From positions 1-64,000 of the forward strand of contig JAGTRW010000013.1 in NCBI GenBank assembly GCA_018262095.1: 64,000 bases of DNA, read 5' to 3'. Numbering within the stretch: position 1 is the first letter of the stretch; every line of letters starts with the position of its first letter. The stretch comes from Pseudomonadota bacterium. Its GTDB lineage: Bacteria > Pseudomonadota > Gammaproteobacteria > Burkholderiales > Rhodocyclaceae. Shown here piece by piece: positions 6,960 to 18,734 of the stretch. The notes beneath the pieces are model-generated. The model saw only the letters and a list, made by a program, of their open reading frames with translations. It was not told where the DNA came from and searched no databases. The translations under genes and the position numbers were made by a program.

Positions 6960-7273
6960 GCCTGGCCGCGATCGGTGCGGTGCGACGCCGCTGCGTCGGT
7001 TCAGTGCTGTCGAGGGGGCTCAGCGTCATTGGGCTTGTCCTTGAGGTGCAGAATATGAAAGGTGCACACGTTTTGCATCGATAGCACCATGGTGATGGGA
7101 TTGCGCCGAGCCGTCAGTCAGTCGCCGCTGAATTCGCTGTCGGGATAAGCGGATTCTGCTGTAGGGTTATCCTGCTGGAATTGCAGGCAATACCGACTGG
7201 CGAAAGCTGCCGCTTGTGATCCAATGCGACGTGGCCAGCAGTGACTGGAACGAACCTATTCAACGGCAACGCA
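6960..7273. other. Divergent intergenic region between the chemosensory operon and the sensor kinase gene
   Basis: 314 bases with no convincing gene; the longest plus-strand frames opening with ATG are 9 and 19 codons. It must hold the promoters of both flanking transcription units. I see an inverted pair GGATAA (7143-7148) and TTATCC (7167-7172), 18 bases apart, upstream of the kinase. A TATTCT-like -10 can be read on the minus strand at 7050-7055, but without a good -35. No sigma-54 or flagellar sigma-28 consensus was found. Confidence 0.5.
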
Positions 7274-9307
7274 ATGAACACAATGCATGGTTTTTGCAAA
7301 CTCCGCGCCGCTTGGTCTGGCCGGCTCCGGTCGCTGTTGCGCGATCGTTTCGAGGCGCGCCTGGCGGCGCTGGGCGGCGCGCTGGCGCTGGTCGTCGGCC
7401 TCGGCCTCTGGCAGCAGCGCAGCAGCTTGCTGGTGGTGGTTCTCGGCGTCGCGCTCAGCTACGCTGCGCTCACTATCCTTTCTGCCCACCGGCGCGAGTT
7501 GCGCCTGAGCGCGTCGCTGGGCCGCTGGCCGCTGATCCTCGCGCATGCCGGCTGGGGCGTGGCCGGGGCGACGGACGACGGGCTGGCGTTGGTGCAGACG
7601 AATCCGGCGTTTGCGCGGATGCACGGATACAGCGTCGACGAGCTGACCGGGCAGTCGATCGAAATCGTCTTCGCGCTCGATTCCAGGAAGGCGTTTGTCG
7701 ATGCGCTGGCCTTGACCCGCCAGGTCGGTCGCCACCGTTTCGAGTCCCTGCACCGGCATCGCGACGGGCATTTCTTCCGCGTCGCGGTCGATATGGCAAT
7801 GGTTGGCGGCGAAGTCGTCTATCGCTTCGTCGACCTGCAGGAGGTCAACGAAATGGGCGATGCGCGCAGAGCGGCGCAGATCGCCAAGGAGTTCTTCGAG
7901 AAGACCTTCGACGCGACGCCGGTCGGCATGTTCGTCGCCGATGACGATGGTCGCTACCTGCGGGTCAATCGCGCGATGTGCGAGTTCACCGGCTATTCGG
8001 AAAGCGAACTGCTCGCCATGTCGTACAGCGACATCACCCACCCCGAAGATGTTGGCCTACAGAAAACGTGGGCGTTGAATGGGGCGACTGGTTCTCGCTA
8101 TCAATCGTTTCACACCGAGAAGCGCTACCTGCACCAGAACGGCGACGAAGTATGGGCGCAACTGACCATGTTGCGGGCCTCCGATGGCGCAGGAGGGGTG
8201 CTTTATTGGGCCGGACAGGTGCTCGACATCGACCGCCTCAAGCGCGCCGAGCTGGCCTTGCGTCTCAGCGAGCAACGTTTTCGCGGGGTGTTCGAAAATG
8301 CCAATACCGGCATGGTCGTTGCCGATCCGAGCGGGCGCGTCGTCCATTTCAACGAAGCCTTCAGCGTGATGCTCGGCCATGATGCCGAAGTCCTGAAGCA
8401 GATGCACTTCGCCGAGTTTTTTGTCCCTGCCGAGCGATCTGCCGAGAACCCGCTGTCCGATGAAATCCTGAAAACACCTGGCGACAAATACCGGATTGAA
8501 AGGCGCTGGACCGCCTGCGACGGGCGATCCGTCTGGGTCGATCTATACATTTCGACGATTCGCGACGAGTCGGGGGCCGTCGTCAATTTCATCGCGGTGG
8601 TCGGCGATATTACCGAGCGCAAGAAGTCGGCGTTGGCGCTCGGCGAGTCCAAACGGAAATTGCGTGCGCTGGCGGCCTACCAGGAAGGCTTGCTCGAGCA
8701 GGAACGCAAACATATTGCCGGCGAGGTGCATGACGAAATGGGGCAGTTGATGACGGCGCTCAAAATGGATCTCTCGCTGATGCGCCTGCGCTTCGGCGAA
8801 AATCTCCAGTTGTTGGCAATGATCGACGAAATGCGCTCGCTGGTCGATCGGACGATCAACGTGGTGCGTCAGGTCGCCAGCAACCTGCGCCCGGCCGTTC
8901 TCGACCACGGCTTGGCGCCGGCGATCGAATGGCTGGCCGCCGATTTTTCAAAACGCGGGACGATCCGCTGCCGGCTTGACGGCGGCGGCAATTTCGCGCT
9001 CCCCGAACTGCAGTCAACTGCCGTCTTCCGCGTCGTCCAGGAGTCGCTGACCAATGTCACTCGCCACTCGCTGGCGCGCGAAGTGGTGATCTCGATGCAG
9101 TGCAGCGGGCAACAGCGGCAGATCGTCGTTCGCGACGACGGCATCGGTTTCGATACCGTCGCGGTCGGCAAAGGCCAGGGCTTCGGCCTGTTCGGCATGC
9201 GCGAAAGGTTGCTGGCGCTGGGCGGCAGGCTGCGCATCGTCAGTGCGCCAGGCCAGGGCACGACGGTTACCATCAAACTCCCTCTGGTGAATGGAGATCC
9301 TTCATGA
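7274..9307 (+). CDS. NarX/UhpB-type sensor histidine kinase with multiple PAS domains
   Basis: 677 residues. A short membrane segment (about residues 30-68, possibly two helices) is followed by three PAS-like domains: a divergent one near 90-190, one near 205-325 with a clear PAS core and PAC, and one near 330-450 ending in DITERKK. The kinase core is of the HisKA_3/HATPase_c class: QERKHIAGEVHDEMGQ with the phospho-acceptor His near residue 486, then RDDGIGFD and GFGLFGMRERLLALGG. It overlaps the next gene by ATGA and so forms a two-component pair with it. The start is uncertain: a GTG at 7241 and ATGs at 7274 and 7283 are in frame, none with a strong ribosome site. The signal is probably cytosolic or membrane-associated, since no periplasmic domain is seen. 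Confidence 0.9.
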   Translation: MNTMHGFCKLRAAWSGRLRSLLRDRFEARLAALGGALALVVGLGLWQQRSSLLVVVLGVALSYAALTILSAHRRELRLSASLGRWPLILAHAGWGVAGATDDGLALVQTNPAFARMHGYSVDELTGQSIEIVFALDSRKAFVDALALTRQVGRHRFESLHRHRDGHFFRVAVDMAMVGGEVVYRFVDLQEVNEMGDARRAAQIAKEFFEKTFDATPVGMFVADDDGRYLRVNRAMCEFTGYSESELLAMSYSDITHPEDVGLQKTWALNGATGSRYQSFHTEKRYLHQNGDEVWAQLTMLRASDGAGGVLYWAGQVLDIDRLKRAELALRLSEQRFRGVFENANTGMVVADPSGRVVHFNEAFSVMLGHDAEVLKQMHFAEFFVPAERSAENPLSDEILKTPGDKYRIERRWTACDGRSVWVDLYISTIRDESGAVVNFIAVVGDITERKKSALALGESKRKLRALAAYQEGLLEQERKHIAGEVHDEMGQLMTALKMDLSLMRLRFGENLQLLAMIDEMRSLVDRTINVVRQVASNLRPAVLDHGLAPAIEWLAADFSKRGTIRCRLDGGGNFALPELQSTAVFRVVQESLTNVTRHSLAREVVISMQCSGQQRQIVVRDDGIGFDTVAVGKGQGFGLFGMRERLLALGGRLRIVSAPGQGTTVTIKLPLVNGDPS

Positions 9308-9936
9308 TTAGAATCATCATTGCCGACGACCACGCGATTGTCCGCGGCGGTCTCAAGCAGATTTTTGCGATGACCAGCGACATCGTCGTCGTCAGCGAGG
9401 CGGCGCAGAGCAGCGAAGTGCTTGAGCAATGGCGGCAGATTCCCTGCGAACTGTTGCTGCTCGATCTGACGATGCCCGGCGTGACCGGCGTCGATCTGAT
9501 CTGTCGATTGCACGACGAAAAACCTGATCTGCCGATTCTCATCCTCTCGATGCACAACGAGGGGCAGATCGTCGCACGGGCACTGAAGGCCGGCGCTGCG
9601 GGCTACGTGACCAAGGACAGCGAGCCGGAAATCCTGCTCGCGGCGGTGCGCAAGGTCGCCGCCGGCGGCAAGTATATCGACCCGGCGCTGGTCGAGAGCA
9701 TGATTTTCAATGCCGGCGGCAGCAGCGACCTGCCGCACGACAGCTTGAGCGAACGCGAACTGCAGGTGCTCAAACTGTTCGCTGCCGGTGGTCCGCTCGG
9801 CGAAATCGCCGAGCGTCTGCACCTGAGCCCGAAAACCGTGAGCACGCACAAGACGCGCTTGATGCAGAAGCTCGGCATCGACAACAACGCCGACCTGGTG
9901 CGCTACGCTACCCGGCACGGCCTGGTCTGTTCCTGA
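9304..9936 (+). CDS. NarL/FixJ-family response regulator
   Basis: 210-residue DNA-binding regulator and partner of the kinase just upstream. The receiver has the acidic pair ADDH (8-9), phospho-acceptor Asp54 in LLLLDLTMPG and the conserved lysine in GYVTKDSEP. A LuxR-type helix-turn-helix follows at about 145-205 (LSERELQVLKLFAAGG, then SPKTVSTHKTRLMQKLG). The ATG overlaps the kinase stop as ATGA, and GGAG lies seven bases upstream, so both proteins are made from one message. It ends ten bases before the convergent Crp-family gene. Targets are unknown; the adjacent amidoligase cluster and the gene pair itself are the obvious candidates by position only. Confidence 0.94.
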   Translation: MIRIIIADDHAIVRGGLKQIFAMTSDIVVVSEAAQSSEVLEQWRQIPCELLLLDLTMPGVTGVDLICRLHDEKPDLPILILSMHNEGQIVARALKAGAAGYVTKDSEPEILLAAVRKVAAGGKYIDPALVESMIFNAGGSSDLPHDSLSERELQVLKLFAAGGPLGEIAERLHLSPKTVSTHKTRLMQKLGIDNNADLVRYATRHGLVCS

Positions 9937-9946
9937 CGCGAGCCGG

Positions 9947-10663
9947 CTAAAAGTCGCAGCCGCCCGGACAGACGTATTTCGACAGCGCCGGGACGTCGGG
10001 GATGAAATAACCCTGTGCCTGCTGCACGATCAGGCCTTTGTCCTGGAGTTCGCGAAACGAGCGCGAGACCTGCGAGGCGGACAGGCCGAGCCGTGAGGCG
10101 AGCTTGTTGTGCGGGATCTCGATCTGCAGGCTGTACGAGCCGTCAGCGGCCATCGGTGCCTTGTTGAAATGGCAAAGCACGTAGCAGATCAGGCGCGAGG
10201 TTGCGCGCTTGGCGCGGTAGGTGAACATATCCTTGTTGAGATAATTGATCCGTTCGGCGATCAGCGACATCAGCCGCCGGGCAAACGCCGGATAGCTCTC
10301 GATCCACTCGGACACCAGCTCGTCCGGCAGGTGCAGCACCGCAGCCTGGCCCAGGCTGCGCGCCGAGTACTGCAGCGGCCGGTCGCCAAACAGCGTTTCT
10401 TCGGCGAGCGTTGCTCCGGCGCGGGCAAAGTCGACGATCTTCTCGCCGTCGTCGGTGTCGGCAACGAACAGCTCGACGATGCCGTTCGCGACCAGATAAA
10501 GCCCCGGCTTGAGCTGCCCGGCGGCGGTGAAGGTCGTCGCCGGCGGCAGCATCAGCTGGTCGTCGGGGCGGCTCTTGAGCGTTGCCAAGAGCACGTCGGG
10601 CGCAATGTCCTGCAGAATCGCCGACGATCTGACTTGCGCCAGTTCGCGATCGCCAAAAGTCAT
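9947..10663 (-). CDS. Crp/Fnr-family transcriptional regulator
   Basis: 238 residues: a cyclic-nucleotide-binding-type beta-roll (about 20-130, KPGLYLVANGIVELF) and a winged helix-turn-helix (about 145-225, HNKLASRLGLSASQVSRSFREL). There is no N-terminal cysteine cluster as in Fnr, so an oxygen-sensing Fe-S centre is not supported. The extreme C-terminus carries Cys232 and Cys236 in VCPGGCDF, which is unusual. The ATG overlaps the stop of the transglutaminase gene (TGATG), placing it as the last gene of the amidoligase operon, which it may autoregulate. The effector is not predictable; DNR/NnrR-like or cAMP-type regulators are alternatives. Confidence 0.9.
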   Translation of the reverse strand: MTFGDRELAQVRSSAILQDIAPDVLLATLKSRPDDQLMLPPATTFTAAGQLKPGLYLVANGIVELFVADTDDGEKIVDFARAGATLAEETLFGDRPLQYSARSLGQAAVLHLPDELVSEWIESYPAFARRLMSLIAERINYLNKDMFTYRAKRATSRLICYVLCHFNKAPMAADGSYSLQIEIPHNKLASRLGLSASQVSRSFRELQDKGLIVQQAQGYFIPDVPALSKYVCPGGCDF

Positions 10664-11598
10664 CAGAGCGCACTCCCTTCGTCAGTCGATGGTGCCGGCT
10701 CGAGCGGCGTGACGGTCACCGCGACGTCAAGCTCGTGCGCGTCGCCGCCGAGGATCACGCCGCGCAGCGGCGAGACGTCGCCGAAATCGCGGCCCCAGGC
10801 GAGCGTGATGTGCTGGGTGTCGGGCAGCAGGTTGTTGGTCGGGTCGAAGTCGATCCAGGTGCCGCCGTCGGCGTTCGGGCAGTAAAGCGAAATCCAGGCG
10901 TGCGAGGCATCGGCGCCGATCAGACGCGGCTGTCCGGGCGGCGGCTGCGTCAGCAGATAGCCGCTGACGTAACGCGCCGGCAGCCCCAGCGAACGCAGGC
11001 AGGCGAGCATCAGATGCGCGAAGTCCTGGCAGACGCCGCGCTTGTCCTCGAGGATCTTGAGCACCGGCGTCGCCACCGTCGTCGCCTCGGGGTCGAATTC
11101 GAATTCGCCGTGGATGCGGCGCATCAGGTCGAAGGCTGCGTCGAGCAGCGCTCGCCCGGGCGTGAAGCTGGGCATGGCGTAGGCGGCAAACTCGCGCTTG
11201 ACGCGAACATAAGGCGATTCGAACAGGAAGCGGTTGGCTTCGAGCAGCACCGGGGCAGCGCCGTAGGCGAGCGCGCGGGCGCCGTCTTCCCAGCTCGCGC
11301 TCGAGCGCAGATCGCACTGCGCCATGGCGTGCGAGCGCACTTCGACGGTGCTTTGCGCGCGAACGACGAGGCGGCTGTGCGGCGCTTCGATGTCGAACTG
11401 GGTGACCGGATTGCCGAAGTGGTCGACGCGCGAATGGCAGTGCGTCGGCTCGGGATCGATGACGATGCACTGCTCAAGGCAGCGTTGCCACGCGCCATCG
11501 CGCGGCGTCAGGTGCAGGTGCTGGCGCGACAGCGAGACCGCGCTTTCGTAGCGGTAGGTCGTCCGGTGATCGATGTGGTAGCGCGCGCTGGTTGCCAT
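10663..11598 (-). CDS. Transglutaminase-like cysteine peptidase (COG1305)
   Basis: 311 residues with the usual bacterial arrangement: an N-terminal beta domain (YHIDHRTTYRYE) followed by the transglutaminase core. The catalytic triad is complete: Cys190 (KRGVCQDFAHLM), His233 (ASHAWISLY) and Asp252 (WIDFDPTNN). Such proteins act as peptidases or amide hydrolases rather than cross-linkers in most bacteria. The ATG at 11598 begins one base after the stop of the ATP-grasp/alpha-E gene; an upstream in-frame extension would overlap that gene and is rejected. It belongs to the conserved association of transglutaminase, circularly permuted ATP-grasp and alpha-E proteins proposed to make or trim a peptide. 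No signal peptide is seen, so it is probably cytoplasmic. Confidence 0.92.
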   Translation of the reverse strand: MATSARYHIDHRTTYRYESAVSLSRQHLHLTPRDGAWQRCLEQCIVIDPEPTHCHSRVDHFGNPVTQFDIEAPHSRLVVRAQSTVEVRSHAMAQCDLRSSASWEDGARALAYGAAPVLLEANRFLFESPYVRVKREFAAYAMPSFTPGRALLDAAFDLMRRIHGEFEFDPEATTVATPVLKILEDKRGVCQDFAHLMLACLRSLGLPARYVSGYLLTQPPPGQPRLIGADASHAWISLYCPNADGGTWIDFDPTNNLLPDTQHITLAWGRDFGDVSPLRGVILGGDAHELDVAVTVTPLEPAPSTDEGSAL

Positions 11599-11599
11599 C

Positions 11600-14125
11600 T
11601 CAGGCCGCCAACGTTTGCCGGCCGACGTCGCCGATATGGGTGAAGTAGCGCATCGCCAGGCGATCGGAAAGTGCCGCCGACGCCTGCGCAATGGCGTCGA
11701 GCGAAGCGGCGAGCGCAAGGCAGGGCTCGCCGCAGGCGCCGAAGTCGAGACCTTCGAAGCGGGCCAGGTCGAAGGATTGCAGGCGCGCCAAGGCCAGCGC
11801 TAGCGTCTCGTCGTCGGCGTCGCCGAGCTCGCGGCCGAGGCGGCCGAGGTAGCGGATCAGGTTCTTGAGCTGGAAGATGACCGCATGCGGGTTGGCGTCG
11901 TCGAAAATGATCAGGTCGAGCGCCGGCAACAGCTCGGGTTGCGCCATGTAACGCGAGCGGTAGGTGATGATGCTGTCGGTCAGCTCGAGCAGCCACTCGA
12001 TGCTGCCCGAGGCTCGCGTCGATTCGAGAAGCAGGAACTGACTGATCGCGTCGCACAGGAAAATCAGGCGCTCGATTCGCCGGCCGACGATCAGGAAGCG
12101 CCAGCCGTCGTCGCGCGTCATGTTGTCCATCGCAAAACCGGCGAGCGAAGACGTCGCGAGCAGCATCTGGTCGAGGAAGGCGAGCGCGTCGCTGATCTCG
12201 GGGCGCGCCTTGCTGTAGCGCTGCAACTGGCGCTGCAGGCGGTTGAGCGCGTACCAGTTGTCGAGCGAAAAACGCTCGCGAACCTGGCTGCCGACCCACA
12301 GCAGGCGGCGGATGTTGCCGGCGATTCCGTCGCGCTGCTGATCGTCGCAGATCGCGTCGAGCAGCAGCGTCTCGAGTTCGCTGTGCTGATCCGCATCGAC
12401 GCCGATCGCTTTGCCGTCAGCTTCCGGCAGCAGCTTGAGCGAGCGGCACAGGTCGAGCGCCGAAGCGAGCGCTGGCGCCGCATCGGCGCCAGCGTCGACG
12501 AGGCGCGAGAGGCCGACGCGCAGCAGCCGTGCGGCGTCGTCGCAGCGCTCGGCGTAACGGCCGAACCAGTAGAGATTCTCGACGACGCGCGACGACAGAT
12601 TGCTGCCGCTGCGAATCAGGTCGGCCTTGCCGACGCGCGTCTTGAGCAGGCTGAAGGTATTTGCCGACGGCTCGCTCAAAACCCAGGTGTCCTTGCTCGA
12701 GCCGCCGCGCTGCATCGAAATGTAGCGCGCGTTGGTCGCCGCCGAGACGCGTGTCAGGCCCCCCGGCATCACCGTGTAGCCGCTCGCCGTCGCTGCGACA
12801 TAGACGCGCAGCGCGACGCCGCGCGGCAGCAGGCGGCGGTCGTGCTTGGTGCTCCAGGCCGGCGCCTGCGAGAAAGCCACCAGTTCCTGCGCGACGTAGG
12901 CCTGTGGCCGTGCGCGCAGACGCGCGATCAGCTCGTCGCGCGCTGCGCCTTTGAGTTCGCTGCCGAAAACCGGGTCCATTCGCTGCGACGGGAAAGAACC
13001 CTTGATTACCAGTTGGTCGAGGTTGGCGATGGCAAATTCGAGCGCCGCCGGTTCGCCGCACCACCAGGTGCCGACCGACGGCATGGCCAGCGGTTCGCCG
13101 AGCAGCTTTGCGCAGGCGCCGGGCAAAAATCCGGGCAGCGCCGCCGATTCGAGCAGGCCGCTGCCGAGCGCGTTGGCGACCAGCACGTTGCCGGCGCGAA
13201 CCGCCTGCAGCAGGCCGGGGACGCCGAGCGCCGAATCGCCGCGCAGTTCGAGCGGGTCGCAGTAATCGTCGTCGAGTCGGCGCAGGATCGCGTGCACGCG
13301 CCGCAATCCGGTCAGCGTCTTGAGATAGACGCGCTCGTCGCGCACCGTCAGGTCCTGGCCCTCGACCAGCGGATAACCGAGGTAGCGCGCGAGGTAGGCG
13401 TGTTCGAAGTAGGTTTCGTTGTACGGCCCGGGCGTCAGCAGAACGATCAGCGGCGTTTCGCCGTCATGCGGCGCGAGTTGCGCGAGCGTGCCCTGCAGCG
13501 CGGCGAAAAAATCGGCGAGGTGCTTGACGCCCAAGTCGCGGAACTCATCGGGGAAGACGCGCGAGACGATCAGCCGGTTTTCGAGCGCGTAGCCGGCACC
13601 CGAAGGCGCCTGCGTGCGATCGGCAATCACCCACCAGCGCCCGTCGGGAGAGCGCGCGAGATCCGCCGCGTAAAGGTGCAGCCAGGTCTCGCCCGGCGGC
13701 TTGATCCCCTGGCAGGGCCAGAGAAAGCCGTTGTGGCCATAGACCAGCGCCGGCGGCAGCGTGCCGCTCTTGATCAAGGTCTGCTCGCCGTAGAGGTCGC
13801 CGAGCACCGCGTTGAGCAGGCGCGCGCGTTGCGTGATGGCGCCCGAAATCTGCTGCCACTCGTCGGCCGACAGGATCAGCGGCAGCGGATCGAGCTCCCA
13901 CGGCCGGTCGGTGCCCTCAGGATCGGCATAGACGTTGTAGGTGACGCCGTTTTCGAGGATTCGTCGGCGAACGTAGTTCTGCCGGTGACGCATCTGCTCG
14001 GGCGTCGCGGCGTTGAGCTGGTCGAAAAATGACCGCCACGGCGCGCGTACTTCGCCGTCCGCGGCGAGCATCTCGTCGAAACGGTCGGTCGTTCTCGGGT
14101 AAATCGAAAGCAGGGTACGCGGCAT
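11600..14125 (-). CDS. Circularly permuted ATP-grasp ligase fused to alpha-E domain
   Basis: 841 residues combining two families often encoded separately (COG2308 and COG2307). The N-terminal half (about 70-495) is the circularly permuted ATP-grasp type 2 domain, recognisable from GPYNETYFEHAYLARYLGYP, VEGQDLTVRD and the late VMPGGLTRVS segment. The C-terminal 509-835 is the all-helical alpha-E domain opening with SSRVVENLYWFGRYAERCDD, which contains the conserved ER. ATP-grasp enzymes form amide bonds using ATP; the substrate here is unknown. It is flanked by transglutaminase genes on the same strand and shares a transcript with them. The start at 14125 lacks a clear ribosome site; the next methionine is at residue 19. 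The fusion supports a direct physical partnership of the two activities. Confidence 0.92.
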   Translation of the reverse strand: MPRTLLSIYPRTTDRFDEMLAADGEVRAPWRSFFDQLNAATPEQMRHRQNYVRRRILENGVTYNVYADPEGTDRPWELDPLPLILSADEWQQISGAITQRARLLNAVLGDLYGEQTLIKSGTLPPALVYGHNGFLWPCQGIKPPGETWLHLYAADLARSPDGRWWVIADRTQAPSGAGYALENRLIVSRVFPDEFRDLGVKHLADFFAALQGTLAQLAPHDGETPLIVLLTPGPYNETYFEHAYLARYLGYPLVEGQDLTVRDERVYLKTLTGLRRVHAILRRLDDDYCDPLELRGDSALGVPGLLQAVRAGNVLVANALGSGLLESAALPGFLPGACAKLLGEPLAMPSVGTWWCGEPAALEFAIANLDQLVIKGSFPSQRMDPVFGSELKGAARDELIARLRARPQAYVAQELVAFSQAPAWSTKHDRRLLPRGVALRVYVAATASGYTVMPGGLTRVSAATNARYISMQRGGSSKDTWVLSEPSANTFSLLKTRVGKADLIRSGSNLSSRVVENLYWFGRYAERCDDAARLLRVGLSRLVDAGADAAPALASALDLCRSLKLLPEADGKAIGVDADQHSELETLLLDAICDDQQRDGIAGNIRRLLWVGSQVRERFSLDNWYALNRLQRQLQRYSKARPEISDALAFLDQMLLATSSLAGFAMDNMTRDDGWRFLIVGRRIERLIFLCDAISQFLLLESTRASGSIEWLLELTDSIITYRSRYMAQPELLPALDLIIFDDANPHAVIFQLKNLIRYLGRLGRELGDADDETLALALARLQSFDLARFEGLDFGACGEPCLALAASLDAIAQASAALSDRLAMRYFTHIGDVGRQTLAA

Positions 14126-14175
14126 GGGGTAGAGGGCAGTGCAAGAGGTCAGTCACATTGAACCTGAAAAAAGCG

Positions 14176-14269
14176 CGTCATTCCGGGCTTGACCCGGAAT
14201 CCAGTAGCGCACCTCTGGATTCCGGCACCCCAAGGGTACTTCCTTCGGGGCGCTTGCGCCGGAATGACG
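14176..14269. repeat. Palindromic repetitive extragenic element
   Basis: A 94-base element with nested inverted repeats. The outer arms are CGTCATTCCGG (14176-14186) and CCGGAATGACG (14259-14269). The inner arms are CGGAATCCAG (14195-14204) and CTGGATTCCG (14215-14224). A further GC-rich arm pair lies between them (CCCCAAGG near 14228 and CCTTCGGGG). This matches the general pattern of the widespread proteobacterial intergenic palindromes built on GTCATTCC and GGAATGAC. It lies between two genes of the amidoligase operon and would form a strong hairpin in that transcript, where it could stabilise the 3' end or reduce downstream expression. Only one copy is seen in the window. Confidence 0.75.
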
Positions 14270-14308
14270 GATCGTTTCATGCGCGTCACACAGCGCCGCG
14301 CCGCAAGT

Positions 14309-17300
14309 TCAAAATTGCCGCAAGTCTAGCGTAAACGGGAAGTCGGCGTTAGCTGACAAGGGCGCTAACTCGATCTTTCCCGGGGTATGGCCGAGCGTGG
14401 AAAAGCGCGCCAGGCGGCGGCCCTCGGCCTCGTTGGCGTTGACCGGGTAGCGCTCGGGGTTGCGCCCGCCGGGGTGTTCGACGTGGTACTGGCAACCGCC
14501 GAGCGAGCGGGCCATCCAGGTGTCGACGAGGTCGAAGGTCAGCGGCGCGTCGATGCCGATGGTCGGGTGCAAGGATGACGGCGGCAGCCAGGCGCGGTAG
14601 CGAACTCCCGCGACATATTCGCCGACGCTGCCGGTCGGCTGCAGCGGCACCGGCTGACCGTTGCAGGTGACCACGTAGCGGTCGCCGGCCATTCCCGTGA
14701 GCTTGACCTGTACGCGTTCGCACGAGGCGTCGACGTAACGCACGGCGCTGCCGGCGCCGCCTTCCTCGCCCATCACGTGCCAGGGTTCGAGCGCGTGGCG
14801 CAGTTCGAAGGAAATCCCCTGCGCGGCGAATCCGCCGTGGCGCGGGAAGCGGAACTCGAAATGCGGCGCGAACCAGGCGCGCTCGAAGCCATAGCCTGCG
14901 GCGCGCAGTTCGTCGATGACGTCGTCAAAATCCTGGCGGACGAAATGCGGCAGCATGAAGCGGTCGTGCAGTTCGGTTCTCCAGCGCAGCAGCCGCTTTG
15001 GCGCGTAGGGCTCGTTCCAGAAGCGCGCGATCAGCGCGCGCAGCAAGAGCTGCTGCGCGAGCGACATGCGCGCGTGCGGCGGCATCTCGAAACCGCGCAT
15101 TTCGAGCAGGCCCAGGCGGCCGCTCGGTCCGTCGGGCGAGTAGAGCTTGTCGATGCAGAACTCGGCGCGGTGCGTGTTGCCGGACGAATCGATCAGCAGA
15201 TTGCGCAGCAAGCGGTCGATCAGCCACGGCGCGACGGTTTTTCCCGGTTCAGGGAACTGGGAAAACGCCAGTTCAAGCTCATAGACCGAGTCGTTGCGCG
15301 CCTCGTCGATGCGCGGCGCCTGGCTGGTCGGGCCGATGAACAGTCCCGAGAAGAGGTAGGAGAGCGAAGGGTGGTTGTGCCAGTAGCTCAGTAGGCTGCG
15401 CAGCAGGTCGGGGCGGCGCAGGAAAGGCGAGTCGAGCGCCGTGCGCGCGCCGAAGACGAAGTGGTTGCCGCCGCCGGTTCCGGTATGGCGGCCGTCGAGC
15501 ATGAATTTCTCGGTGGTCAGGCGCGCGAGGTGCGCCGTCTCGTAGAGGTGAGTGGTGCGTTCGACGAGCTCGTCCCAGTTCGCGCAAGGCTCGATGTTGA
15601 CCTCGATGACGCCGGGGTCGGGGGTAACGCGAAAGTTGGTCAATCGCGGGTCGGACGGCGGCTCGTAGCCTTCGAGCAGCACCGGCGTGTTGAGCGCCTT
15701 GGCGGTCGCTTCGACGGCGGCGACGAGCTCGAGGTAGTCGTCGAGCGAATCGGTCGGCGGCATGAAGACGTAGAGCCGGCCATCGCGCGCCTGCAGCGAA
15801 ATCGCTGTGCGCGTGATCCCGGTTGCCGACTCGTCTTTCTGCGGGGCGAGTTCGTCTTCCGTTTCGGCGGGTGCATTGGCGTCCGATCTGTCCTTGAGCT
15901 CTTGATGCCCCGGCAGCGGCTCGAAGTCCTGCGTCGGGTCGGGCGCGTGGGTGTAAGGGTAATCGTCCCTGGCCACCCACGGCTGCGAGTCGAGCGGCAG
16001 GCGCAAGCCAATCGGCGAGTCGCCGGGAACCAGCAGGCAGCGTCCGCCGCGCAGATACCAGGGGCTGCTCTGCCAGCGCTTGGCGTCGCGCGGATGGCGC
16101 ATCAGCGGCAGCACGTGGCCGATCACCTGAGTCAGGCCTTGGTCGAAGATCGCCGCCAGCCGTTCGCGTTCGAGCGCGTCGTCAAGTTTCGCGTCGTGCG
16201 GATCGACGTTGATCGGCAGGCGCCGCTCGCGCCACAGGTAGTAAAAGGCGTCCTCATACGCCGCGAAGACGTACTTTTCCGAAAGCCCCAGGCGTTCGCT
16301 GAGCGCGCGCAGAAAGGTCCCGGCCAGCGCTGCGTCGGCGCCGTAATCCTTGGTTTCGTCGGCGATCAGCGCAGGATCGCTCCACACCGGCTCGCCGTCG
16401 CGCCGCCAGAAGCAGTTGAGCGACCAGCGCGGCAATTGCTCGCCCGGATACCACTTGCCCTGGCCGAAGTGGGTGAGGCCCTGCGGCGCGTATTTGTCGC
16501 GCAGCCGGTGGAAGACTTCGGCGGCGAGACGCCGCTTGGTCGGCCCGAGCGCTGCGGTGCTCCATTCGGCGCCGTCGCGGTCGTCGAGCGAAACGAAGGT
16601 CGGTTCGCCGCCCATCGTCAGGCGGACGTCGCCAGCTTCGAGCTCGTCGTCGATCTGCTGGCCGAGCGCTGTGATCGCCGACCATTGTTCATCGCTATAC
16701 GGCTTGGTGACGCGCGGCACTTCGCGAACGCGCTCGATGCTCATGTGGTGCTCGAACTCGCATTCGCAGGGGTCGGAAAAGCCGCTGATCGGCGACGCGG
16801 ATGAGGGCTGCGGCGAACAGGCGACCGGGATGTGGCCTTCGCCGGCGAACAGTCCCGAGGTCGGGTCGAGGCCGACCCAGCCGGCGCCCGGCAAATACAC
16901 TTCGCACCAGGCGTGCAGGTCGGTGAAGTCGACGTCGGTTCCCGACGGACCGTCGAGCGACTTGACGTCGGGCACCAGCTGGATCAGGTAGCCCGAGATG
17001 AAGCGCGCGGCAAGTCCGAGCTGGCGCAGCACCTGGACCAGCAGCCAGGCCGAGTCGCGGCACGAGCCGCTGCCCAGCGTCAGCGTCTCTTCTGGGCTCT
17101 GCACGCCGGGCTCGAGGCGGATCACGTAGCTGACGACGCGCTGCACGCGGCGGTTGATGTCGACCAGGAAATCGACGCTGCCGATCGGTTCTCTCGGGAT
17201 CGTCTTGATGAATTCGCCAAGCTTGGGACTCGGCGCCAGCGTTTGCAGAAAGGGAAGCAACTCGTCGCGTTGCGCGGCTTCGTAGGCGAACGGGAATTTT

Positions 17301-17599
17301 TCCGCATAGGGCTCGGGGAAGAAGTCGAAAGGGTTGATCACCGACAGCTCGGCGATGAGATCGACCTCGACGCGCAGCTCGCGAGTCTTCTCGGGAAAGT
17401 TGAGCCGCGCGAGATAATTGCCCTGCGGGTCCTGCTGCCAGTTGATGAAGTGTTCGGCGGGAGTGACCTTGAGCGAATAGCTCAGGATTGGCGTTCGCGA
17501 GTGCGCCGCCGGGCGCAGCCGGACGACCTGCGGCGACAGCGCGACCAGGCGGTCGTAGCGATAATGGCTGACGTGGTTGAGCGCGACTTGAATTGACAC
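14309..17599 (-). CDS. Transglutaminase-DUF2126 putative amidoligase fusion
   Basis: 1096 residues. The first 290 form a transglutaminase-like peptidase with the triad Cys180 (LGSGSCRDSAWLL), His229 (DLHAWCEVYLP) and Asp245 (GLDPTSGL). The remaining 800 are DUF2126, a family annotated as a putative glutamine-synthetase-fold amidoligase. Typical segments are LTMGGEPTFVSLDDRDGAEW, FGQGKWYPGEQLPRW and HTGTGGGNHFVFG. The start is GTG with GGAG six bases upstream. It is the first gene of the operon and is separated from the ATP-grasp gene by 183 bases holding a palindromic repeat. Having a hydrolase and a ligase in one chain suggests processing and ligation of the same peptide-like substrate; this is inference. 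Confidence 0.92.
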   Translation of the reverse strand: MSIQVALNHVSHYRYDRLVALSPQVVRLRPAAHSRTPILSYSLKVTPAEHFINWQQDPQGNYLARLNFPEKTRELRVEVDLIAELSVINPFDFFPEPYAEKFPFAYEAAQRDELLPFLQTLAPSPKLGEFIKTIPREPIGSVDFLVDINRRVQRVVSYVIRLEPGVQSPEETLTLGSGSCRDSAWLLVQVLRQLGLAARFISGYLIQLVPDVKSLDGPSGTDVDFTDLHAWCEVYLPGAGWVGLDPTSGLFAGEGHIPVACSPQPSSASPISGFSDPCECEFEHHMSIERVREVPRVTKPYSDEQWSAITALGQQIDDELEAGDVRLTMGGEPTFVSLDDRDGAEWSTAALGPTKRRLAAEVFHRLRDKYAPQGLTHFGQGKWYPGEQLPRWSLNCFWRRDGEPVWSDPALIADETKDYGADAALAGTFLRALSERLGLSEKYVFAAYEDAFYYLWRERRLPINVDPHDAKLDDALERERLAAIFDQGLTQVIGHVLPLMRHPRDAKRWQSSPWYLRGGRCLLVPGDSPIGLRLPLDSQPWVARDDYPYTHAPDPTQDFEPLPGHQELKDRSDANAPAETEDELAPQKDESATGITRTAISLQARDGRLYVFMPPTDSLDDYLELVAAVEATAKALNTPVLLEGYEPPSDPRLTNFRVTPDPGVIEVNIEPCANWDELVERTTHLYETAHLARLTTEKFMLDGRHTGTGGGNHFVFGARTALDSPFLRRPDLLRSLLSYWHNHPSLSYLFSGLFIGPTSQAPRIDEARNDSVYELELAFSQFPEPGKTVAPWLIDRLLRNLLIDSSGNTHRAEFCIDKLYSPDGPSGRLGLLEMRGFEMPPHARMSLAQQLLLRALIARFWNEPYAPKRLLRWRTELHDRFMLPHFVRQDFDDVIDELRAAGYGFERAWFAPHFEFRFPRHGGFAAQGISFELRHALEPWHVMGEEGGAGSAVRYVDASCERVQVKLTGMAGDRYVVTCNGQPVPLQPTGSVGEYVAGVRYRAWLPPSSLHPTIGIDAPLTFDLVDTWMARSLGGCQYHVEHPGGRNPERYPVNANEAEGRRLARFSTLGHTPGKIELAPLSANADFPFTLDLRQF

Positions 17600-17873
17600 G
17601 GGGCTCTCCGATGCAAAAGGGCTGACCAGCGGGACAACAGGCGATCAGACAGTCCTTTAGCAAGAGCTGCGCCATCTGCTGAGCTGCCGATTGGCTTGAT
17701 TGCGGGTTTTGGCGCACCGAATGCGTGCGCGCGTCTCTGGCGACGCACCAAGGCATGGCGACTGTTGCGGCAAACGACGAAAATGTGCGCTGGCCGACAG
17801 ATCGGCCGCGCCACAAGTCTTTATACTCGAATCGTCTTGCAGCCACGTTCGGCTCGACCTAGAAGGATCAGCA
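17600..17873. other. Divergent control region between two transglutaminase genes
   Basis: 274 bases with no supported gene. It must drive the DUF2126 operon to the left and the third transglutaminase to the right. A perfect six-base palindrome, GGCCGA (17792-17797) CAGA TCGGCC (17802-17807), lies 14 bases upstream of a TATACT -10 element (17822-17827), where an operator overlapping the -35 region would be expected. The co-operonic Crp-family protein is a possible ligand, although the palindrome does not look like a canonical Crp or Fnr box. Confidence 0.45.
17822..17827 (+). promoter_or_regulatory. Putative -10 element of the third transglutaminase gene
   Basis: TATACT, five of six matches to the sigma-70 -10 consensus, 46 bases upstream of the ATG. 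No good -35 is found 16-18 bases upstream; the GGCCGA/TCGGCC palindrome occupies that place, which suggests regulated rather than constitutive initiation. Confidence 0.4.
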
Positions 17874-18734
17874 ATGCGACGCCTCAATATTTCCCACGTT
17901 ACCGAATACCGTTATTCGACACCGGTGTCACTGCTGCCGCATCGCTTGCGCCTGCGTCCGCTCGAGAGCCACGGTCTGCGCATCGAGTCGTCGACGCTGG
18001 CGATCGCGCCGGCACATACGCTGCGCTGGTATCGCGACGCGCTCGGCAATTCGGTGGCGATCGCCAGCTTCAGCGAACTCGCTGACACGCTGCGCGTGAC
18101 CAGCGAGGTGGTGATCGAGGTCTATGACGACGCGCCGCTCGATTTCCTGATGGAGGACTACGCGGTCAACTGCCCGTTCGCCTACGCGGCCGGCGAGCAG
18201 ATCGATCTGGCACCGTTCGAGCAGAGCGTCTATGTCGATGACGCGCCGGCGGTGCACGACTGGCTGGCCGGACTCGGGCTGCTGGCGCGGCCGGTCGACA
18301 CCTTCGCGCTGCTTTCCCAACTCAACTGCGCGATCGCCAATACCTTCAGCTACCGGATTCGCGAGGAAGAGGGCGTTCAGTCGCCGGGAGAGACTTTGCG
18401 CCTTAACAGCGGTTCGTGCCGTGATTTTGCCGCGCTGTTCATCGAGGCCTGCCGCAGCATGGGGCTCGCCAGCCGCTTCGTCAGCGGCTATCTGCACATG
18501 CCCGACAACGAAGCGGGAAATGCCTCGACGCACGCCTGGGCCGAGGTCTATCTGCCGGGGCCGGGGTGGAAAGGCTTCGATCCGACCAGCGGCCTGGTTA
18601 CCGGCAACCAGCATATTCCGGTCGCGGTGGCGCGCCATCCCGAAGCGGTGCCGCCGGTTTCGGGCAGTTTCGTCGGCCCGGCCGGACAACTTCCGACGCT
18701 CACCGTGGCGGTTCGCGTCAGCGCGCTGGCGTAG
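17874..18734 (+). CDS. Transglutaminase-like cysteine peptidase (third copy in cluster)
   Basis: 286 residues with the N-terminal beta domain (NISHVTEYRYSTPVSLLPHR) and the catalytic core. The triad is intact: Cys182 (LNSGSCRDFAALF), His220 (STHAWAEVYLP) and Asp236 (GFDPTSGL). The C-terminal GNQHIPVAVARHPEAVPPVS resembles the end of the transglutaminase part of the DUF2126 fusion (GEGHIPVACS), so the two are probably close paralogues. AAGGA lies six bases before the ATG. It diverges from the amidoligase operon, so it can be expressed separately. Its last 17 bases overlap the 3' end of nhaA on the other strand. No signal peptide is seen. Confidence 0.92.
   Translation: MRRLNISHVTEYRYSTPVSLLPHRLRLRPLESHGLRIESSTLAIAPAHTLRWYRDALGNSVAIASFSELADTLRVTSEVVIEVYDDAPLDFLMEDYAVNCPFAYAAGEQIDLAPFEQSVYVDDAPAVHDWLAGLGLLARPVDTFALLSQLNCAIANTFSYRIREEEGVQSPGETLRLNSGSCRDFAALFIEACRSMGLASRFVSGYLHMPDNEAGNASTHAWAEVYLPGPGWKGFDPTSGLVTGNQHIPVAVARHPEAVPPVSGSFVGPAGQLPTLTVAVRVSALA

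What the first reader, a model, noticed from the sequence alone, without database searches (positions are those of the whole stretch)
9947..18734. Amidoligase/ATP-grasp/transglutaminase cluster with three transglutaminases and its own Crp-type regulator
Three intact transglutaminase triads, a circularly permuted ATP-grasp/alpha-E fusion and a DUF2126 amidoligase lie together. Comparative genomics has linked these families to an unidentified peptide-ligation/modification pathway, sometimes with the proteasome-like peptidase Anbu. No Anbu gene is present here, while a Crp/Fnr regulator overlaps the operon end (TGATG). Two ligases (ATP-grasp and GS-like) plus three hydrolases imply synthesis and trimming of a small peptide or protein tag whose nature is unknown.
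Basis: partly seen in the sequence, partly recalled or inferred. Interest (0 to 1): 0.72.

Follow-up and report, generated by a model that had tools for sequence, protein, structure and literature searches.

The report
Nitrogen-starvation peptide-ligase operon with dead ligase
This is a member of a known but biochemically unsolved bacterial enzyme set; its control signals suggest a nitrogen-starvation system, and the ligase encoded here looks catalytically dead while an intact copy with similar control signals sits elsewhere in the genome.

Summary
At 9947-18734 lie a transglutaminase-DUF2126 gene, a circularly permuted ATP-grasp/Alpha-E fusion, a transglutaminase and a Crp/Fnr gene (minus strand), plus a divergent transglutaminase; all three Cys-His-Asp triads are intact. 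It belongs to the known ATP-grasp/Alpha-E/transglutaminase/DUF2126 system. The interpretation needs three changes. (1) The fused ATP-grasp is probably not a ligase: residues invariant in 30 of 30 stand-alone homologues (E-x-N, Gly loop, Lys, DLR Asp, Asn) are kept by at most 2 of 98-99 fused ones. An intact stand-alone copy plus Alpha-E lies on another contig; all 22 fusion genomes (of 120 in the order) also carry a stand-alone copy. (2) The conserved control is not Crp but a sigma54-like promoter with NtrC-type palindromes, seen before this operon, before the second locus and across the order. Published nitrogen induction agrees; one P. putida rpoN mutant, however, kept it. Crp follows the operon in only two of 30 relatives searched. 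(3) Anbu was not found in this genome. Most likely a nitrogen-starvation module making a glutathione-like amide or peptide, the fusion being a non-catalytic partner. Product, substrate and DUF2126 chemistry remain unproven.

The parts
14309..17599 (-). transglutaminase-DUF2126 protein, 1096 aa (GTG start)
   Evidence: Pfam; triad C180/H229/D245; 35-sequence alignment, mean column identity 73%
11600..14125 (-). circularly permuted ATP-grasp (presumed inactive) fused to Alpha-E, 841 aa
   Evidence: Pfam; model pLDDT 84.9; Foldseek 3n6x and glutathione synthetases; presumed catalytic residues replaced
10663..11598 (-). transglutaminase-like protein TG2, 311 aa
   Evidence: Pfam, (on the longer frame); triad C190/H233/D252 in 77 of 77
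9947..10663 (-). Crp/Fnr-family regulator, 238 aa, overlapping the TG2 stop (TGATG); attached only in part of the genus
   Evidence: Pfam; junction; distribution
17874..18734 (+). divergent transglutaminase-like protein TG3, 286 aa
   Evidence: Pfam, (on the longer frame); triad; divergent neighbour in L003 and L004 and beside TG-DUF2126 in G003, G007, G010, G013, G018
17659..17674 (-). sigma54 promoter-like site TGGCGCAGCTCTTGCT, 75 nt upstream of the TG-DUF2126 start
17714..17728 (.). perfect NtrC-type palindrome GCAC-N7-GTGC
   Evidence: (position -129), sequence

Best explanation
The operon is half of a two-locus, nitrogen-starvation-induced amide/peptide-forming module. Under nitrogen limitation NtrC and sigma54-RNA polymerase transcribe both this operon and a CP-ATP-grasp + Alpha-E pair on contig C12. 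The stand-alone ATP-grasp on C12, with its presumed catalytic residues intact and a glutathione-synthetase/glutathionylspermidine-synthetase type of fold, activates a carboxylate as acyl phosphate and joins it to an amine. The fused ATP-grasp/Alpha-E protein encoded here is a non-catalytic partner (scaffold, substrate carrier or regulator). DUF2126 is the second presumed ligase, and the transglutaminase-like thiol enzymes hydrolyse or transfer amide or gamma-glutamyl bonds, trimming or recycling the product. Shown here: gene content, residue loss, trans copy, promoter-like signals, no Anbu found. Inferred: expression and co-regulation in this organism, the non-catalytic role, DUF2126 chemistry, the product class.
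For: Sigma54 core motif upstream of TG-DUF2126 in 44 of 63 loci, all at -49 to -75; 0 of 77 and 0 of 77 before the two downstream genes; shuffled 1.1%. NtrC palindrome with 0-1 mismatch in 44 of 63, shuffled 14%, internal controls 8 and 12 of 77. Before stand-alone genes (17 near such operons, 1 own on C12): motif 7 of 18, palindrome 15 of 18. Order-wide set, pattern unchanged: motif 34 of 60, antisense 3 of 60, shuffled under 1%; palindrome 34 of 60, shuffled 11-12%. Own C12 pair: TGGCACGCTTTCTGCT at -48 and GCACAGCCTTGGTGC at -114. NtrC equivalog 689 bits, cut-off 558.6, and RpoN present. Fused against stand-alone residues. All 22 fusion-length genomes have DUF2126 and, by the rows, a stand-alone CP-ATP-grasp; all 41 DUF2126 genomes have a CP-ATP-grasp, against 27 of 79 others, Fisher 5e-14. 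Published passages: P. putida PP_2686-2688 up 11-15-fold on nitrogen limitation, the PP_2688 promoter 3.7-fold, PP2685-2687 up; B. cenocepacia cluster lowered in an ntrC mutant; Yersinia ATP-grasp releases phosphate from ATP.
Against: In print, P. putida PP_2686-2688 were still induced 14-20-fold in an rpoN mutant, as were the urt genes, which speaks against sigma54 dependence there; the same paper calls NtrB/NtrC control putative, shows PP_2685 at only 1.12-fold in wild type, and elsewhere a PP_2685 reporter was nitrogen-agnostic. Another passage says operon expression is unchanged under various conditions. Anbu-operon proteins showed no peptidase activity and no stable complex. 19 of 63 operons lack the motif; 6 of them (L023, L033, L037, L040, L049, L062) have the stand-alone gene upstream, but only L023 shows the motif there, though all 6 have a palindrome. 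Only 8 of 20 order-wide TG-DUF2126 promoters carry the motif. The DUF2126 model was poor (pLDDT 65) and matched no ligase fold, so a second ligase rests on Pfam's name. That the lost residues are Mg/ATP ligands rests on motif correspondence with E. coli Gss; a profile alignment to Gss/YgiC/YjfC failed. The fused domain keeps D155, N318, R282, R283 and mostly a Lys or Arg in the loop.
Confidence: 0.55

Rival explanations
1. Protein tagging: the ligases attach a peptide tag to proteins and the thiol hydrolases remove or trim it, an Anbu-free remnant of a ubiquitin/proteasome-like pathway.
For: Proposed in print for the Anbu operon (passages); ligase-type and hydrolase-type genes lie together.
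Against: No conserved tag gene fits in the operon (median gaps 84 and 6 nt); no Anbu found in this genome, nor in 12 of the 13 other same-family genomes searched, some of them incomplete. A tag encoded elsewhere was not looked for.
Confidence: 0.12
2. The fused ATP-grasp is an active ligase that uses other metal ligands, so the operon is self-sufficient.
For: High conservation (A1 mean column identity 54%); retained D155, N318, R282, R283 and mostly a loop Lys/Arg; glutathione-synthetase-like fold kept in the model.
Against: E167 and N169 positions kept in 0 of 99, K327, G380, D438 and N469 in 0 of 98; no fusion-length genome of 22 lacks a stand-alone copy (rows).
Confidence: 0.13
3. A nitrogen-scavenging set: the thiol enzymes release ammonia from glutamine residues or amides of protein, and the ligase parts recycle the products.
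For: Nitrogen-limitation control; a related idea for Anbu is in print.
Against: Gives no clear role to the conserved ligase-type genes. Transport or secretion partners were not examined.
Confidence: 0.15

Closest known systems
ATP-grasp/Alpha-E/transglutaminase/DUF2126 peptide-synthesis system (Iyer et al. 2009; not read, not held; known through passages)
   Same: Same families: CP-ATP-grasp, Alpha-E, transglutaminase, and a transglutaminase-DUF2126 fusion (that the last is part of the 2009 description is recalled)
   Different: Split over two loci here; the ATP-grasp in this operon lacks presumed catalytic residues; no Anbu found; Crp attached at the end; divergent third transglutaminase
Anbu operon (P. 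putida PP_2685-2688, Y. bercovieri)
   Same: ATP-grasp, Alpha-E and transglutaminase families; induced by nitrogen limitation in P. putida
   Different: No Anbu found; adds DUF2126 and an Alpha-E-fused ATP-grasp
B. cenocepacia I35_5080-5083 (PMC5491218, passages)
   Same: DUF404/407, DUF403, transglutaminase and large transglutaminase protein, listed at -6.0 to -9.4 in the ntrC mutant
   Different: ATP-grasp and Alpha-E are separate genes in a single cluster
Eukaryotic glutathione synthetase and E. coli Gss (PDB 3kal, 2hgs, 2io7)
   Same: Overall fold of the ATP-grasp part of the window model; E-x-N and VK-loop motifs in the stand-alone copy
   Different: About 10-15% identity; the fused copy lacks E-x-N and the Gly loop

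Membership tests
ATP-grasp/Alpha-E/transglutaminase/DUF2126 system | CP-ATP-grasp, Alpha-E, transglutaminase and transglutaminase-DUF2126 genes together | tested here: met
   same order in 59 of 79 loci
ATP-grasp/Alpha-E/transglutaminase/DUF2126 system | catalytically competent ATP-grasp ligase | tested here: inconclusive
   not met by residues in the fused copy, met by residues in the C12 copy; activity not tested
ATP-grasp/Alpha-E/transglutaminase/DUF2126 system | DUF2126 is a glutamine-synthetase-like amidoligase | tested here: inconclusive
   Pfam name only, 'putative amidoligase'; poor model, no ligase match
Anbu operon | Anbu gene | tested here: not met
   the profile is true Anbu by PDB matches
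ATP-grasp carboxylate-amine ligase (fused copy) | E-x-N metal ligands and Gly-rich loop (role recalled) | tested here: not met
NtrC/sigma54 regulon | sigma54 -24/-12 site plus NtrC palindrome upstream, NtrC and RpoN in the genome | tested here: met
   by sequence only
NtrC/sigma54 regulon | expression dependent on NtrC and RpoN | not testable with these tools
   published: NtrC-dependent in B. cenocepacia; induction kept in a P. putida rpoN mutant for the related Anbu operon
Ubiquitin/Pup-like tagging system | tag gene and proteasome partner | tested here: not met
   no room for a conserved tag gene in the operon, no Anbu found; a tag elsewhere in the genome not tested
Crp-autoregulated operon | conserved linkage of the Crp gene | tested here: not met

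The most novel reading that the evidence does not exclude
A bacterial, glutathione-like two-ligase pathway for nitrogen starvation: an intact glutathione-synthetase-type ATP-grasp and DUF2126 jointly build an unknown amide or peptide, and the fused ATP-grasp/Alpha-E protein is an obligate pseudo-ligase subunit or carrier for the active copy encoded in trans, a pseudo-enzyme/enzyme pair kept together by NtrC control.
Probability: 0.28. Interest if true: 0.8.

Novelty: new member of a known kind. Interest (0 to 1): 0.5.

Why it matters
The set was predicted from comparative genomics and has no known product in the passages seen here. The promoter evidence says when to look (nitrogen starvation), the residue evidence says which protein to assay (the stand-alone ATP-grasp, with the fusion as partner), and genomes without Anbu offer a simpler version. 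That makes an open question directly testable.

Tried and rejected
Crp as the operon's own regulator: rejected for lack of conservation. An FNR/Crp-like pattern gave 25 window matches against 9 expected, an excess I did not explain; two lie inside operon genes (12386-12399, 17154-17167) and none in the 17600-17873 intergenic region.

A sigma54 motif for the divergent TG3: none. A whole-window sigma54 scan was uninformative (90 matches against 125 expected); only position and conservation gave signal. The pattern was shaped, so one search is not blind.

PF00227 counts of Anbu were dropped as a measure: the Anbu profile also found Anbu in G023, G109, G112 and G013 (the first three are without Anbu-like matches, G013 was not in that set). 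Three positives (G020, G040, G063) are in the profile by construction. In one search I left nine weak matches starting at profile position 5 out of the Anbu-like list by eye.

DUF2126 fold check: failed. Profile alignment to E. coli Gss/YgiC/YjfC: failed. Greedy longest-ORF calling was replaced by tblastn.

Paper searches for active-site residues of glutathione synthetase found nothing usable. Pfam's remark that inactive CP-ATP-grasps are often fused to Alpha-E is recalled, from no call.
Full report
What is there. The window lies on contig C55 of a 4.8 Mb, 82-contig genome, 97.7% complete. The closest relatives of its fused protein are Propionivibrio and Accumulibacter sequences, 68-79% identical in the best segment, so this is inferred to be a Rhodocyclales bacterium. 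Pfam confirms each gene of the finding. The minus-strand order is transglutaminase-DUF2126 (14309-17599), CP-ATP-grasp/Alpha-E (11600-14125), TG2 (10663-11598), Crp/Fnr (9947-10663); TG3 (17874-18734) is divergent. All three triads are intact. These three are the only Bact_transglu_N matches of the genome.

Conservation. TG-DUF2126, fusion and TG2 lie together on one strand with small gaps in 59 of the 79 loci with a full fused gene. Of the other 20, 10 are cut by contig ends, L027 failed my TG2 length filter, L041, L057, L073 and L079 have DUF2126 further away, and L007, L009, L013, L035 and L044 have none in about 10 kb upstream. So DUF2126 is usual but not obligatory beside the fusion. TG3 was the best-matching query next to the operon only in L003 and L004, and a TG3-like gene lies beside TG-DUF2126 in five same-genus genomes (G003, G007, G010, G013, G018; by coordinates G007 and G013 are the organisms of L004 and L003). 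The Crp gene directly follows TG2 in G000, G010 and G015; G003 has a close Crp on another contig, and G002 a 56% identical Crp without DUF2126. So TG3 and Crp are lineage-specific, and Crp is not the general regulator.

No Anbu found. PF00227 finds a single protein in this genome, HslV. I built a profile of 15 Anbu proteins from the order, verified as Anbu by matches to solved Anbu structures at E 8e-97 to 2e-119. It finds none in 13 of 14 same-family genomes searched, this one included; G013, same genus, has one. It does find Anbu in 7 of the 10 other-family genomes searched, 3 of them in the profile by construction.

A second locus. The genome has one more CP-ATP-grasp, on C12. It is a stand-alone 484 aa gene followed by a stand-alone Alpha-E gene. 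The genome has no Bact_transglu_N or Anbu match outside the window to go with it. In several relatives such a stand-alone gene sits upstream of the window-type operon on the same strand (L016, L022, L023, L033, L037, L040, L049, L062).

Order-wide co-occurrence (120 genomes of at least 95% completeness). CP-ATP-grasp above cut-off is in 68, DUF2126 in 41. All 41 DUF2126 genomes have CP-ATP-grasp, against 27 of the other 79 (Fisher 5e-14), and 37 of 41 have one within 5 kb on the same strand. A CP-ATP-grasp in a frame of 770 aa or more, my proxy for the Alpha-E fusion, is in 22 genomes. All 22 have DUF2126, and by the rows all 22 also have a shorter, stand-alone copy (probability 6e-7 if placed at random among the 120; this ignores relatedness).

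The fused ATP-grasp has lost the presumed catalytic residues. I aligned 31 stand-alone and 100 fused sequences (cells recounted). Residues invariant in 30 of 30 stand-alone sequences with letters there are kept in the fused ones as follows: E167 0 of 99 (A 74, G 15), N169 0 of 99 (R 98), K327 0 of 98, G380 0 of 98, G383 2 of 98, D438 0 of 98, N469 0 of 98; G381 (29 of 30) 6 of 98. Kept are D150 (window D155) 96 of 99, N317 99 of 99, R281 97 of 98, R282 98 of 98, and K374 as Lys 84 or Arg 13 of 98. In E. coli Gss the same order of motifs appears, D-x(n)-E-x-N and VK-x(3)-G (printed); that its D318, E330 and N332 bind Mg is recalled. The model of the window protein is good (pLDDT 84.9) and matches 3n6x, eukaryotic glutathione synthetases and their relatives, Gss and trypanothione synthetase; no other kind of protein reached E 0.001, so Alpha-E has no clear solved relative. 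Several replacing residues are themselves conserved (R170, Q172), so I read the domain as repurposed, not decaying. Pfam's own note that inactive forms are often fused to Alpha-E is recalled, so this part is probably an extension of an earlier prediction.

Regulation. Upstream of TG-DUF2126, 44 of 63 loci (window included) carry a sigma54 core motif, all between -49 and -75 from the start. None of 77 regions before the fusion gene and none of 77 before TG2 does; shuffles give 1.1%. NtrC palindromes with at most one mismatch occur in 44 of 63, shuffles 14%, internal controls 8 and 12 of 77. Before 18 stand-alone genes (17 from the loci, 1 own) the motif is found in 7 and the palindrome in 15. 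The window has the sigma54-like site at 17659-17674 and a perfect palindrome at 17714-17728. The C12 pair has TGGCACGCTTTCTGCT at -48 and a perfect palindrome at -114. Many loci are close relatives (the Pseudomonas sites are nearly identical), so the counts are not independent. With the pattern fixed, 60 further clusters gave the motif in 10 of 16 hybrid, 16 of 24 stand-alone and 8 of 20 TG-DUF2126 promoters, with antisense hits in 0, 2 and 1, and palindromes in 10, 17 and 7 (shuffled 11-12%). NtrC and RpoN are in the genome.

Literature seen. PMC6376114, PMC5666114, PMC5491218, PMC3597751, PMC8050072, PMC7801951, PMC3325844, PMC13207237, PMC8407117, PMC10274813 and PMC3327638 were seen as passages only. 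For: nitrogen-limitation induction of P. putida PP_2686-2688 (11-15-fold) and of the PP_2688 promoter (3.7-fold), a B. cenocepacia cluster of these families lowered in an ntrC mutant, a predicted sigma54 site before a Bradyrhizobium CP-ATP-grasp gene, co-variation with urea genes in marine metagenomes, phosphate release by a Yersinia ATP-grasp. Against: PP_2686-2688 kept their induction in an rpoN mutant (14-20-fold; the urt genes too), PP_2685 was at 1.12-fold in that study and its reporter nitrogen-agnostic in another, and one passage reports unchanged operon expression under various conditions. Thus nitrogen control of this family is known in outline, and the part of sigma54 in it is not settled. 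In the held library, the listings showed no paper on Rhodocyclales promoters of this operon or on a pseudo-ligase/ligase pair; the library lacks most subscription papers, Iyer et al. 2009 among them.

Reading. The most likely account is a nitrogen-starvation module whose active ligase is encoded in trans and whose operon-borne ATP-grasp is a non-catalytic partner. Steps shown: genes, triads, residue loss, trans copy, promoter-like signals, no Anbu found. Steps inferred: expression in this organism, the partner role, DUF2126 chemistry, the product. The DUF2126 structure attempt failed (pLDDT 65; only the transglutaminase structure 3isr reached E 0.001).

Noticed in passing
G025:C1:4148345-4148845, G034:C15:98528-99028 and others: A second weak PF00227 class, mostly frames of about 200-226 aa starting at profile position 5, apart from HslV and Anbu; perhaps the betaproteobacterial proteasome homologue (name recalled).
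   Followed up: no
G013:C98:4534-5271 (the genome of L003 by its coordinates): The only same-genus genome of those searched with Anbu; it lies on another contig than the operon.
   Followed up: no
L227:4422-5582 and L228:8029-9192 (E. coli K-12): YgiC and YjfC are annotated as peptide--spermidine ligases; that they are Gss-like ATP-grasps is recalled. It suggests polyamines as amines to test with the stand-alone ATP-grasp.
   Followed up: partly
L007, L009, L013, L035, L044: Fused ATP-grasp/Alpha-E and TG2 genes without any DUF2126 match in about 10 kb upstream and without runs of N in 6 kb upstream; whether DUF2126 lies elsewhere in these genomes was not checked.
   Followed up: no
window 7241-9307 and 9301-9936, plus strand: A PAS histidine kinase and LuxR-type response regulator pair ends 10 nt from the end of the Crp gene, convergent with the operon.
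   Followed up: no
L180 (G018, upstream of TG-DUF2126): The promoter of this close relative has only a near-miss, AGGCGCGTCTTTTGCC, in place of the sigma54 pattern.
   Followed up: no
G000:C18:3973-4251: A second, short match (103 aa frame) to the sigma54 DNA-binding domain besides the full RpoN.
   Followed up: no
window, 25 sites: FNR/Crp-like palindromes TTGAT-N4-ATCAA with up to 2 mismatches are more frequent in the window than in shuffles (25 against 9).
   Followed up: no
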